Shown: positions 10,433 to 14,096 of the stretch, one piece after another
How the letters are laid out: every line of letters begins with the position of its first letter
Position numbering within the stretch: the stretch's first letter is position 1
Assembly: GCF_000166335.1 (NCBI RefSeq)
Contig: NC_014657.1
Span: 798,501 to 862,500 of the forward strand
Origin: Caldicellulosiruptor owensensis OL
GTDB taxonomy: Bacteria > Bacillota > Thermoanaerobacteria > Caldicellulosiruptorales > Caldicellulosiruptoraceae
Direction: 5' to 3'
DNA length: 64,000 bases
The notes under the pieces: generated by a model
The model's input: the letters and a program-made list of their open reading frames with translations, nothing else
The model's database searches: none
Told to the model about the DNA's origin: nothing
Program-made: the position numbers and the translations under genes

Positions 10433-11518
10433 ATGGGTTTTAAAATGACGTTTAGGTGGTTTGGTCCAAAAGATGATAATATTCCTCTTGAGTATATTCG
10501 CCAAATTCCAGGGATATACGGTGTTGTAACAGCCCTTTTTGATATTCCAGTTGGAGAGGTATGGCCGGAGGATAGGATCTTTGAGCTAAAAAGAATGGTA
10601 GAAGATGCAGGGCTAAAGTTTGAGGTAATAGAAAGTGTAAATGTTCACGAGGATATAAAACTTGGTCTTTCAACCAGAGATAGATATATAGAAAATTATA
10701 AGCAAACCATAAGAAATTTAGCGAAAGCAGGTATAAAAGTAATATGCTATAACTTCATGCCTGTATTTGACTGGCTGAGGACAGACCTTGCAAAAAAGCT
10801 TCCAGATGGTTCTGAGGTTATGGAATATAACCATGAGATGCTCAAGAATCTGACACCAGATGAACTTGTAAAAAGTATGGAAAAGGGTTCACAAGGATTT
10901 TCTCTTCCTGGCTGGGAGAGCTACAGATTAAAACAGCTTCAGAGCCTGTTTGAGATGTACAAGGATGTTGATGAGAATAATCTTTTACAAAATCTTATCT
11001 ACTTTTTGGAAAATATAATTCCTGTATGTGAAGAATGCGATGTTAAAATGGCAATACATCCTGACGATCCACCTTGGTCACTTTTTGGTCTTCCAAGGGT
11101 TGTGACAAACAAGGAAAATATAGAAAAGTTTTTAAAAGCGGTTGACAGTCCGTACAATGGTTTGACTTTGTGCACAGGTTCTCTTGGAGCAAACAAGGAA
11201 AACAACATTCCGGAGCTTATAAGATATTTTGGCAAGATGGGAAGAATACATTTTATGCATGTAAGGAACATAAAATTTACAGGTGAGAGGTCTTTTTACG
11301 AGACGTCTCACCTGTCGACAGATGGTTCATTTGACATGTTTGAGATTATGAAGGCTATATACGAAATAGGTTTTGACGGGTATTTGCGACCTGACCATGG
11401 AAGAATGATTTGGGGCGAAAAAGGAAGACCTGGTTATGGACTTTATGATAGAGCCCTTGGCATTGCGTATTTGAACGGGTTGTGGGAAGCAATTGATAAG
11501 ATGTCGAAAATGAAATGA
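10433..11518 (+). CDS. uxuA: Mannonate dehydratase
   Basis: The 361-residue protein matches UxuA from its first residues (MTFRWFGPKDDNIPLEYIRQ). It has metal-site segments MAIHPDDPPWSLFGLPRVV and LCTGSLGANKENN, IHFMHVRNIKF, and a C-terminal DGYLRPDHGRMIWGE. It converts D-mannonate to 2-keto-3-deoxygluconate using a divalent metal in the cytoplasm. The ATG at 10433 follows AAAGAAAGGGG; a second ATG at 10445 is possible. No KDG kinase or aldolase is present in the window, so the pathway is completed elsewhere. Confidence 0.96.
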   Translation: MGFKMTFRWFGPKDDNIPLEYIRQIPGIYGVVTALFDIPVGEVWPEDRIFELKRMVEDAGLKFEVIESVNVHEDIKLGLSTRDRYIENYKQTIRNLAKAGIKVICYNFMPVFDWLRTDLAKKLPDGSEVMEYNHEMLKNLTPDELVKSMEKGSQGFSLPGWESYRLKQLQSLFEMYKDVDENNLLQNLIYFLENIIPVCEECDVKMAIHPDDPPWSLFGLPRVVTNKENIEKFLKAVDSPYNGLTLCTGSLGANKENNIPELIRYFGKMGRIHFMHVRNIKFTGERSFYETSHLSTDGSFDMFEIMKAIYEIGFDGYLRPDHGRMIWGEKGRPGYGLYDRALGIAYLNGLWEAIDKMSKMK

Positions 11519-11542
11519 AGTAGTAGTTATAAACAACAAAAA

Positions 11543-11644
11543 CGGTTGTCCCGAAAACCGCCTGCTGGGGCTGGGAGGCTTTGATATGGCGGACTATAAA
11601 TACCCCAGCCATCTTGAGCCGCTATTCTTTTGCTGCGGCTCAAG
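11543..11644 (+). promoter_or_regulatory. GC-rich structured leader between uxuA and the GH2 gene
   Basis: Three or more stems can form: CGGTT/AACCG (11543-11547, 11556-11560), GCTGGGG/CCCCAGC (11564-11570, 11603-11609), and a perfect 10-bp stem CTTGAGCCGC/GCGGCTCAAG (11613-11622, 11635-11644). CCGCC (11558-11562) can alternatively pair with GGCGG (11588-11592). The last stem ends in the only purine-rich stretch (CAAGGTG) near the GH2 start and is followed by five Ts, so it could act as a terminator or hide a ribosome site. I recognise no known riboswitch. Confidence 0.5.
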
Positions 11645-11663
11645 GTGTTTTTAAGTTTCAAAA

Positions 11664-14096
11664 ATGCAGAAAATAAATTTGGACAGGTCATGGGAATATC
11701 TTGAGCTTGGTTTTGCAAACGTGCTGAGCTTAACAAGTTCAGAATATGAGTGGAAAAAAGTGGATCTACCACATGATGTTGTAATTGAAAAGGAGAGAAG
11801 TGAGGACAATCCCTCAGGTGCCGGTGAAGGGTATACTGCAGGATGCAGTTTGTATTACAAAAAGGAATTGTTCTTGAATGAGCAATGGAAGGGCAAAAAT
11901 TTGATACTTGAGTTTGAAGGAATTATGGGTATAGCCGAGGTTTTTGTAAATGGTAGATTAGTTGCAAAACACTTTAATGGATACACGAGTTTTCTAATTG
12001 ATATAACAAAACATGTAAAGTTCGATGATAAGAACATTGTTATTGTACGTGTAGAGAACACTCATAAGCCAAGTTCAAGATGGTATGCAGGTTGTGGTAT
12101 ATACAGGCATGTGTGGCTACACATCGGTGGCAAGGTGTATATAAAACCGTGGCATTTGCATGTTCAAACCAGAGAAATTGAAAACCAAACGGCAAAGTTA
12201 GAAGTAAGAGCTGCTGTTGTCAACAGTGTGAATGAAAAAATTGAAGGAGTAATAAAGTTTGATGTATTTTCAAAAGAGGAAAAATTAGTGCTCAGTAGTG
12301 AAGAGAGATTTTTGATTGGTGAAAATGAAGAAAAGGTAATTGCTAAAACCTTGGAACTAAAACCATTTAAATATTGGGATGTAGAAGACCCATATCTTTA
12401 TAAAATTCAAGCAACTATTATTTGTGATGAGAGTATTGAAGATAGTGCTTCTACATTGTTTGGTATTCGGACAATTTCAGCTGATCCAAAGGAAGGATTT
12501 AAATTAAATGGTAAGCCATTAAAATTGAAAGGTGGCTGTGTTCATCATGACAACGGACCACTTGGAAGTGCAAGTTTCGATAGAGCAGAAGAGAGAAAAG
12601 TAGAACTTTTAAAAGCTTCTGGATTCAACGCAGTAAGACTTGCACACAATCCATTTGCTCCTGCTTTTTTAGATGCATGTGATAGATTGGGGATGCTTGT
12701 GATAGAAGAATTTTTTGATGTATGGCATGCTGGCAAAGTTAGCTTTGACTACCATCTATTTTTTGATAAGTACTGGGAAGAAGATGTGGAGTCCACCATA
12801 ATGAGGGACTATAATCATCCTTCGATAATAATGTGGTCAATAGGAAACGAGATTACATGGGGAGTTGGAATTGATGTTGATGATGGTAGCAGCTATTCCA
12901 TCTACAGCTGGTGTGAGCGACTATCTAAAAAGGTAAAGAGCCTGGATTCATCAAGGCTGGTAACAGCGGCGCTGTGCGCAATCCCGGATGATTATAAAAG
13001 GCTTTTTGCCATAATTGAAGTAGGTAACTATGTAATTAGAATGCTTAAACAAGAAGCTGATGTTATTGAAGATAAATGGGGCGAGTTTTCAGAAAAGTTT
13101 TCGAAGTTTTTAGATGTTGTTGGTTATAACTATAAAGTAGATAGATATGCATACGATAGGTATAAATATCCTGACCGAATAATTTGTGGGACAGAAACTT
13201 ATCCGTATACTCTTTTCAAAAACTGGAAGGAAACAATGGAAAATTCAAACGTAATAGGTGATTTTGTGTGGACGGCTATTGATTATTTAGGTGAAGCAGG
13301 ACTTGGTAGGGTAAGTATTGAAGAAGATGATCTTAAATCTTTCTGCGGGGCTTATCCATGGTTTTTGGCAAATTGTGGGGATATTGATATTTGTGGTGAA
13401 AAACGACCTCAATCGTATTATAGGGATGTTGTTTGGGGAAATAGAAAAGATCCATATATTGTAATACTTCCACCACAAATGTATGGCAAAAAACTGTACT
13501 TTAAACCTTGGGCATGGGAGCCTGTTGAAAGAAGCTATACCTTTCCTGGATGTGAGGGGATGAAGATAGCAATATATATCTATGCAAATGCAGATGAGGT
13601 TGAACTGTTTGTAAATGGCAGAAGTTTGGGAAGAAAAAAAGCTGATGTTTCTACTGAGTTTAAAACAGTTTATGACACAATTTATGAACCAGGGGTAGTG
13701 GAAGCTATAGCATATAAAGATGGTAAAGAGATTGGCAGGGACAGAATAGAAACAACGGGTGAGCCCGCAGCCTTAAAACTGGTGCCAGATAGAGAAGTTA
13801 TATCCTCTTGTTATGGTGATTTGTGCTACATAAAGATAGTAGCAGTTGATAAAAATGGGAGGGAGGTTGTTTTTGCGGATAACACAATAATTGTAGAGGT
13901 TGAAGGTGTTGGTGAACTTGTTGCTTTGGGAACTGCTGACCCTTTATCGGGGGAACCATTTGTTAGTCGAAAGAGAAAACTTTATAAAGGACGAGCACTG
14001 GCAATAGTAAAGAGCATTGGCAAAAAAGGAGATTTTAAATTGAAAGCTTGGGCAGAAGGATTGGGTGGTACTCAAGTTTTTGTAAAATGCATTTAA
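11664..14096 (+). CDS. Glycoside hydrolase family 2 (beta-galactosidase/beta-glucuronidase-like)
   Basis: This 810-residue enzyme has the GH2 order: a sugar-binding jelly roll (residues 1-170, with YAGCGIYRHVWL), an immunoglobulin-like domain, a TIM barrel from about 275 (GIRTISADPKEGFKLNGKPLK split by context), then C-terminal beta domains. The acid/base Glu lies in IMWSIGNEITW and the nucleophile Glu in RIICGTETYPYTLF. No signal peptide is seen, so it is probably cytoplasmic and trims imported oligosaccharides. The exact specificity cannot be read from sequence. ATG 11664 is the only in-frame start, because TAA lies at 11652, and its ribosome site is weak, which makes the structured leader upstream notable. 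Confidence 0.9.
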   Translation: MQKINLDRSWEYLELGFANVLSLTSSEYEWKKVDLPHDVVIEKERSEDNPSGAGEGYTAGCSLYYKKELFLNEQWKGKNLILEFEGIMGIAEVFVNGRLVAKHFNGYTSFLIDITKHVKFDDKNIVIVRVENTHKPSSRWYAGCGIYRHVWLHIGGKVYIKPWHLHVQTREIENQTAKLEVRAAVVNSVNEKIEGVIKFDVFSKEEKLVLSSEERFLIGENEEKVIAKTLELKPFKYWDVEDPYLYKIQATIICDESIEDSASTLFGIRTISADPKEGFKLNGKPLKLKGGCVHHDNGPLGSASFDRAEERKVELLKASGFNAVRLAHNPFAPAFLDACDRLGMLVIEEFFDVWHAGKVSFDYHLFFDKYWEEDVESTIMRDYNHPSIIMWSIGNEITWGVGIDVDDGSSYSIYSWCERLSKKVKSLDSSRLVTAALCAIPDDYKRLFAIIEVGNYVIRMLKQEADVIEDKWGEFSEKFSKFLDVVGYNYKVDRYAYDRYKYPDRIICGTETYPYTLFKNWKETMENSNVIGDFVWTAIDYLGEAGLGRVSIEEDDLKSFCGAYPWFLANCGDIDICGEKRPQSYYRDVVWGNRKDPYIVILPPQMYGKKLYFKPWAWEPVERSYTFPGCEGMKIAIYIYANADEVELFVNGRSLGRKKADVSTEFKTVYDTIYEPGVVEAIAYKDGKEIGRDRIETTGEPAALKLVPDREVISSCYGDLCYIKIVAVDKNGREVVFADNTIIVEVEGVGELVALGTADPLSGEPFVSRKRKLYKGRALAIVKSIGKKGDFKLKAWAEGLGGTQVFVKCI

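What the first reader, a model, noticed from the sequence alone, without database searches (positions are those of the whole stretch)
11543..11644. GC-rich multi-stem leader between uxuA and GH2, unlike any riboswitch I know
In AT-rich surroundings this 100-nt stretch forms three stable stems with an alternative CCGCC/GGCGG pairing, and the last perfect 10-bp stem ends next to the only possible ribosome site of the GH2 gene and a short T-run. It could be a terminator/antiterminator or translation switch, or a processing hairpin balancing expression.
Basis: partly seen in the sequence, partly recalled or inferred. Interest (0 to 1): 0.55.

Follow-up and report, generated by a model that had tools for sequence, protein, structure and literature searches.

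The report
Transposon guide-RNA relic kept as leader
The structured stretch in front of this sugar-degrading enzyme gene is the guide-RNA end of a jumping gene that lost its nuclease, and bacteria of this genus have kept its folded shape in front of the same gene, probably to control how much enzyme is made.

Summary
The structure is real, but it is neither a riboswitch nor an ordinary terminator. Window 11549-11647 is the right end (omega-RNA scaffold) of an IS605-type TnpB transposon. A covariance model of its core finds 55 strong copies in 12 genomes of the genus: 41 lie just after tnpB, 11 are this site, 3 are one-off solos. The window genome has only this copy and no TnpB of this family. 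The solo copy sits between uxuA and GH2 in 11 of 11 genomes with the GH2 gene, and is absent from the one genome without it. Its core is far more conserved than four-fold synonymous sites (0.964 against 0.801 in eight species; 0 of 5000 resamples reach it). The pseudoknot stems are kept, partly by compensatory changes; the last hairpin (13 bp, not 10) changed sequence but stays paired in all 11. The parent transposon inserts directly after Shine-Dalgarno GGAGG, and GH2 lacks a recognisable Shine-Dalgarno in all 11 genomes. Best reading: an omega-RNA exapted as a cis-acting mRNA leader. Origin and selection are shown by sequence; the mode of action (most likely structure-controlled, SD-poor translation of GH2) is inferred. 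Guiding a TnpB in trans is less likely.

The parts
11549..11647 (+). Solo omega-RNA-derived leader element (P1-PK-P2 pseudoknot plus P3 hairpin)
   Evidence: CM R1 hit, the only strong one in own genome; orthologous in 11 of 11 GH2-bearing genomes
11554..11609 (+). Conserved core: 0.964 mean identity in 8 species against 0.801 at four-fold sites
   Evidence: only 6 of 56 positions vary in clade 1, all in 11577-11586
11549..11552 (+). P1 5' arm (TCCC)
   Evidence: pairs with 11573-11576; both-side changes in other species and IS copies; shortened here against 9 bp in IS copies
11573..11576 (+). P1 3' arm (GGGA)
11558..11562 (+). PK 5' arm (CCGCC)
   Evidence: paired in 11/11 and 24/24 sequences, never varies
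11588..11592 (+). PK 3' arm (GGCGG)
11564..11570 (+). P2 5' arm (GCTGGGG)
   Evidence: compensatory U-A to C-G change in G007
11603..11609 (+). P2 3' arm (CCCCAGC)
11610..11622 (+). P3 hairpin 5' arm; homologous in position to the transposon right-end hairpin
   Evidence: all 11 orthologues fold a hairpin here, -17.9 to -25.9 kcal/mol over the segment
11635..11647 (+). P3 hairpin 3' arm; ends 16 nt before the GH2 ATG (15-17 nt in the 11 genomes)
11648..11663 (+). Linker to the start codon: T5 here, no conserved U-run, no Shine-Dalgarno; place where an omega-RNA guide would begin
11664..14096 (+). GH2 glycoside hydrolase gene served by the leader
   Evidence: Pfam GH2 domains; orthologues in 11 of 12 genus genomes
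10433..11518 (+). uxuA, upstream gene in all 11 loci

Best explanation
An IS605-type, tnpB-only transposon that inserts directly after Shine-Dalgarno sequences landed in front of the GH2 gene in an ancestor of this genus. Its left end and tnpB were lost, but the right end, which encodes the omega-RNA scaffold, stayed and has been kept by selection as a cis-acting RNA in the uxuA-GH2 transcript. The pseudoknot (P1/PK/P2) adjoins hairpin P3, which ends 15-17 nt before the GH2 start codon. GH2 has no proper Shine-Dalgarno, so the structure most likely sets how efficiently 30S subunits start on GH2, and may also shield the 5' side of the GH2 segment from RNases. SHOWN by sequence: transposon origin, conserved position, purifying selection, paired structure, missing SD. 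INFERRED: that it acts in cis as RNA, that it acts on translation, and a single ancestral insertion rather than two at the same SD.
For: Origin: the core is a repeat in the genus and in other genera (22 of 37 class genomes, 2 of 8 genera). 41 of 55 strong genus copies follow tnpB within 300 nt. The protein matches NCBIfam TIGR01766 (TnpB-related) and TIGR01765 above cut-off, with RuvC-like D220, E283 and D353 invariant in 9 of 9. SD targeting: 22 of 24 distinct left ends follow GGAGG; 25 of 30 intact right ends have a start codon 5-12 nt downstream, against 11% of random positions for a 3-16 nt range. Selection: core identity 0.964 against 0.801 at 339 four-fold sites in 8 species, and 0.912 against 0.654 in 11; 0 of 5000 resamples reach it in either set. 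Structure: 98% of cells paired against 32-58% when slid. P3 sequence differs completely between the two clades yet is paired in all 11. Position: uxuA-element-GH2 in 11 of 11 GH2 genomes. Not dependent on TnpB: the window genome lacks this TnpB and has 0 core changes on its branch (G000 and G010 identical at 56 of 56) against 25 of 370 four-fold sites. In G005, G009 and G007 the ACTA loop, kept in 44 of 46 intact transposon copies, has changed although TnpB is present. GH2 anti-SD energies are +0.3 to -5.3 against a median of -8.6 for window ORFs.
Against: No expression data, so that the element is transcribed with GH2 is inferred from operon layout and the absence of a predicted promoter. P1 is shortened to about 4 bp in the window's clade. 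The SD comparison picks the best start per window ORF, which favours strong SDs in the control. The G000-branch result is weak alone (about 3.8 changes expected, 0 seen). Two independent insertions at the same SD cannot be excluded, because P3 differs between clades. TnpB identity has no Pfam or PDB support and NF040570 is below cut-off. G000 still has 8 other TnpB-type matches that might bind it.
Confidence: 0.55

Rival explanations
1. Selective RNA processing and stabilisation element: the polycistronic mRNA is cut near the element and the pseudoknot/hairpin protects one of the halves, setting the GH2 to uxuA ratio, as with intergenic stem-loops of the clostridial cip-cel operon.
For: Very stable hairpin at a gene junction in an operon-like row GH67, oxidoreductase, uxuA, GH2; precedent in PMC4423207 (abstract and outline).
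Against: A simple stabiliser does not need an invariant pseudoknot core with conserved single-stranded bases, nor explain the persistent lack of an SD; compatible with the best explanation as a second effect.
Confidence: 0.22
2. Working guide RNA in trans: TnpB (or a dead relative) takes this omega-RNA from the uxuA-GH2 mRNA and uses the GH2 5' end as guide, or binds the leader and blocks GH2 translation.
For: Core and in clade 1 also the loop match transposon copies; 10 of the 11 genomes with the leader carry this TnpB family; spacing of P3 to a would-be guide fits omega-RNAs (PMC10278001 section 13).
Against: Window genome has no such TnpB; loop changed in G005/G007/G009 where TnpB is present; the ACCAGG right-end terminus is lost in all 11; no GGAGG-flanked match to the guide in the window and none among the eight inspected genome hits.
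Confidence: 0.12
3. Intrinsic terminator or attenuator: P3 plus the T-run ends part of the transcripts before GH2.
For: In the window P3 is directly followed by five T (11648-11652).
Against: An unbroken T5 occurs in only 2 of 11 orthologues; it does not explain the pseudoknot core.
Confidence: 0.06
4. Neutral relic of a transposon end that has not yet decayed.
For: Solo right ends occur elsewhere as one-off relics (3 of 55 copies).
Against: Core conservation above every resample of four-fold sites, retention in 11 of 11 GH2 loci including species with about 45% four-fold identity in GH2, paired P3 with wholly changed sequence.
Confidence: 0.03

Closest known systems
Omega-RNA (reRNA) of IS200/IS605 TnpB elements, e.g. 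ISDra2
   Same: Lies at the transposon right end; scaffold with a pseudoknot and a subterminal 3' hairpin shortly before the guide position (PMC10097598 passages; PMC10278001 section 13).
   Different: No tnpB and no left end at this site; right-end terminus lost; single copy; kept in front of one gene; not in Rfam 15.
TldR: exapted nuclease-dead TnpB with guide RNA
   Same: Host use of a part of a TnpB transposon.
   Different: Here the RNA is kept and the protein is gone from the locus; TldR keeps both, with a dead nuclease (PMC13418256 passages).
Selective RNA processing and stabilisation stem-loops (cip-cel operon)
   Same: Stable structure between genes of a sugar-utilisation operon.
   Different: Pseudoknotted, transposon-derived, next to an SD-less start; processing untested.
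Structured cis-regulatory mRNA leaders (general class, recalled)
   Same: Conserved structured RNA just before a start codon.
   Different: No Rfam match; no ligand evidence.

Membership tests
IS605-type TnpB right end / omega-RNA | Homologous copies directly downstream of tnpB | tested here: met
   41 of 55 strong genus copies; not at the window copy itself, where tnpB is absent
IS605-type TnpB right end / omega-RNA | Pseudoknotted scaffold with subterminal 3' hairpin | tested here: met
IS605-type TnpB right end / omega-RNA | Intact transposon terminus (ACCAGG) and left end, so mobile | tested here: not met
   terminus absent in all 11 GH2 loci; no left end found by the pattern in the GH2 loci
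Functional omega-RNA | Binds a TnpB protein | not testable with these tools
   cognate TnpB absent from own genome; needs a binding assay
Functional omega-RNA | Guide with a TAM-flanked target | tested here: inconclusive
   no GGAGG-flanked guide match in the window or in eight inspected genome hits; whole genome not searched for TAM plus guide
TldR | Adjacent nuclease-dead TnpB gene | tested here: not met
   no TnpB beside the element; flanks are uxuA and GH2
Intrinsic terminator | Stem followed by a conserved U-run | tested here: not met
   unbroken T5 in 2 of 11; the scan allows loops of 3-8 only and could not judge the 12-nt loop
Known riboswitch or Rfam family | Match to an Rfam covariance model | tested here: not met
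SRPS element | Processed RNA ends at the junction | not testable with these tools
   no RNA data

The most novel reading that the evidence does not exclude
A transposon that targets Shine-Dalgarno sequences brings its own RNA fold as a substitute: the omega-RNA pseudoknot has become an SD-independent translation-initiation or translation-control element, so that solo omega-RNA leaders (GH2 here, yjbQ in Thermosediminibacterales) form a class of transposon-derived cis-regulators.
Probability: 0.17. Interest if true: 0.85.

Novelty: new variant of a known kind. Interest (0 to 1): 0.62.

Why it matters
Domestication of TnpB transposons is known for the protein (Cas12, TldR). Here the guide-RNA half is kept without its protein at the locus, in front of one enzyme gene, under measurable selection. 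A transposon family that aims at Shine-Dalgarno sites places its guide-RNA fold in 5' leaders, which makes such recruitment likely to recur and easy to search for. It is directly testable with reporters in laboratory strains.

Tried and rejected
Riboswitch or known RNA: no Rfam match at gathering or relaxed threshold. Internal promoter: none found between uxuA and GH2. Leader peptide: the core differs by 5 nt in length between clades (4-nt and 1-nt insertions, alignment A3), which breaks any frame, and changes cluster in one linker. Switch between P3 and a second hairpin (CTCAAG..CTTGAG just before the ATG): favourable in G001, G002, G004, G006 and G008 (about -9 to -10 kcal/mol), weaker in G003 and G010, about -1 in the window, absent in G005/G007/G009, so not general. 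Weak CM hits in the genus (E above 1e-6) were not followed; of those in the own genome only G000:27453 was looked at, which is AT-rich noise. TnpB by fold: not tried; sequence searches of the PDB gave nothing relevant. I did not test whether the element is one insertion or two. A claim that exapted solo omega-RNA leaders are not in print rests only in the held open-access library.

Full report
1. The observation. Window 11543-11644 was reported as a GC-rich multi-stem stretch between uxuA and a GH2 gene. It is there: uxuA ends at 11518 and GH2 starts at ATG 11664. The strand folds better than all 200 shuffles. The precise anatomy is P1 11549-11552/11573-11576, PK 11558-11562/11588-11592, P2 11564-11570/11603-11609 and P3 11610-11622/11635-11647. 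P1, PK and P2 cross each other, so the CCGCC/GGCGG pairing is part of a pseudoknot rather than an alternative fold. P3 is 13 bp. No Rfam family matches.

2. It is a transposon end. Window 11520-11680 is single copy in its own 2.43-Mb genome. In relatives, however, the part corresponding to 11549-11614 is a dispersed repeat, up to 11 matches per same-genus genome. In those copies the repeat directly follows a gene of about 484 codons that scores above cut-off for NCBIfam TIGR01766 (TnpB-related) and TIGR01765, below cut-off for NF040570, and without a Pfam match. Three RuvC-like acidic residues (D220, E283, D353) are invariant in 9 of 9 aligned proteins (that these are the RuvC residues is my reading). 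PDB sequence searches found no relevant relative. A covariance model of the core (R1) gives 55 strong matches in the 12 genus genomes: 41 have tnpB within 300 nt upstream, 11 are the GH2 leader, 3 are other solos (eight weaker matches were left out of this count). The window genome has only the GH2 leader and no TnpB of this family, though 8 matches to the wider TnpB-related domain. The literature describes omega-RNAs as transposon right ends with a subterminal hairpin close to the guide (PMC10278001, section 13 read) and a pseudoknot (PMC10097598, passages).

3. The parent transposon aims at Shine-Dalgarno sequences. Of 30 rows, one is a chance match and five repeat another row's place or flank; of the 24 left, 22 left ends directly follow GGAGG (exceptions L076 and L094). 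Of 30 distinct intact right ends (ending ACCAGG), 25 have a start codon 5-12 nt further on and 26 within 44 nt; random positions give 11% for 3-16 nt and 27% for 2-44 nt. G-rich TAMs are reported for a small subset of TnpBs (PMC10278001, section 14 read). The only paper found with TnpB and GGAGG that bears on this describes GG-containing targets of group B IStrons (PMC4227781, passages).

4. The GH2 copy is old and under selection. GH2 is found in 11 of 12 genus genomes and in no other of the 37 class genomes at E 1e-100. All 11 have uxuA, then the element, then GH2, with 131-152 nt between the genes; the twelfth genome (G011) has neither GH2 nor a solo copy. Two clades exist: eight genomes with 88-100% GH2 identity to the window, and G005, G007 and G009 with 73-75%. 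Core 11554-11609 has mean pairwise identity 0.964 in the eight (four-fold sites 0.801, n 339) and 0.912 in all 11 (0.654, n 287). 0 of 5000 resamples reach the observed value in either set, and only 6 of 56 positions vary in the eight, all in linker 11577-11586. In the named pairs of P1, PK and P2, 98.0% of cells pair, against 31.9-57.7% for slid versions, with three pairs changed on both sides; 31 of 500 shuffles also reach that count of three and 496 of 500 reach the count of further pair types, but none reach the paired percentage, the count of doubly changed cells or the covariation score. Over 24 transposon and solo sequences, ten pairs and 46 cells show both-side changes, against 5.3 and 14.3 in shuffles. 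P3 has an entirely different sequence in the second clade but is a hairpin of similar length at the same place in all 11, ending 15-17 nt before the ATG (in G001 the minimum-energy fold of the segment splits it into two hairpins). The 24 rows used for model and counts were chosen by me from available loci, not at random.

5. How it may work. GH2 has no convincing SD in any of the 11 (anti-SD energy +0.3 to -5.3 kcal/mol; median -8.6 for 43 window ORFs of 200 or more codons, GH2 included, where the best start was chosen for each, which favours the control). The simplest history is that the transposon entered at GH2's SD and later lost its left end and tnpB, while the right end stayed. The lasting absence of an SD, easily regained by mutation, together with an invariant structured core, suggests that the structure sets GH2 translation. 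Protection or processing of the mRNA is an alternative or additional role (cip-cel precedent PMC4423207, abstract and outline). Against TnpB guiding in trans: no cognate TnpB in the window genome, 0 core changes on that genome's branch against 25 of 370 four-fold sites (about 3.8 expected, weak alone), a changed ACTA loop in G005, G007 and G009 although TnpB is present there (the loop is ACTACA or ACTATA in 44 of 46 intact right ends), and a lost right-end terminus. The U-run after P3 is unbroken in only 2 of 11, against termination.

6. Wider picture. Solo copies also occur upstream of a yjbQ-like gene (name from recall of the protein family) in Thermovorax subterraneus and a Thermosediminibacteraceae MAG, each with its own SD. 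They were found with an exact pattern, so their similarity is biased upward. Three one-off solos occur in the genus. In the held open-access library no paper combining these themes was found (listings only unless stated). TldR, the exapted dead TnpB, is the nearest published domestication (PMC13418256, passages; the original TldR paper is not held). The genus is probably Caldicellulosiruptor, but that is recalled from gene content and rests on no call.

7. Verdict. Origin as a TnpB transposon right end: about 0.95. Conserved by selection as RNA structure: about 0.9. Acting in cis on GH2: about 0.8 in some form; on translation in particular about 0.5. New variant of a known kind.

Noticed in passing
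L070-L097 and other tnpB loci: A tnpB-only IS605-type family whose left ends follow GGAGG (22 of 24) and whose right ends lie 5-12 nt before start codons (25 of 30): a transposon aimed at Shine-Dalgarno sites, so that its guide would be the gene start.
   Followed up: partly
L054:1806-2364 (-) and L056:380-919 (-): Solo omega-RNA cores upstream of a yjbQ-like gene in two Thermosediminibacterales genomes, each followed by a normal SD: a possible second exapted leader.
   Followed up: partly
L098:3116-3226 (+), L099:3378-3488 (+), G008:C1:6350-6419: One-off solo copies of the core in single genomes; the first two have changed loops.
   Followed up: partly
window 11635-11655: In five of eight clade-1 species the 3' arm of P3 could instead pair with a CTTGAG copy just before the ATG (about -9 to -10 kcal/mol); weak in G003 and G010, nearly lost in the window. 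A further ATCTTGAGC lies in GH2 codons at about 11698-11706.
   Followed up: partly
G002:C1:40772-42217: A full tnpB match with no strong omega-RNA core match beside it at the thresholds used.
   Followed up: no
G000:C1:902965-903201 and seven other places: The window genome holds 8 matches to the TnpB-related domain TIGR01766 of other families; whether any acts on the leader is unknown.
   Followed up: no
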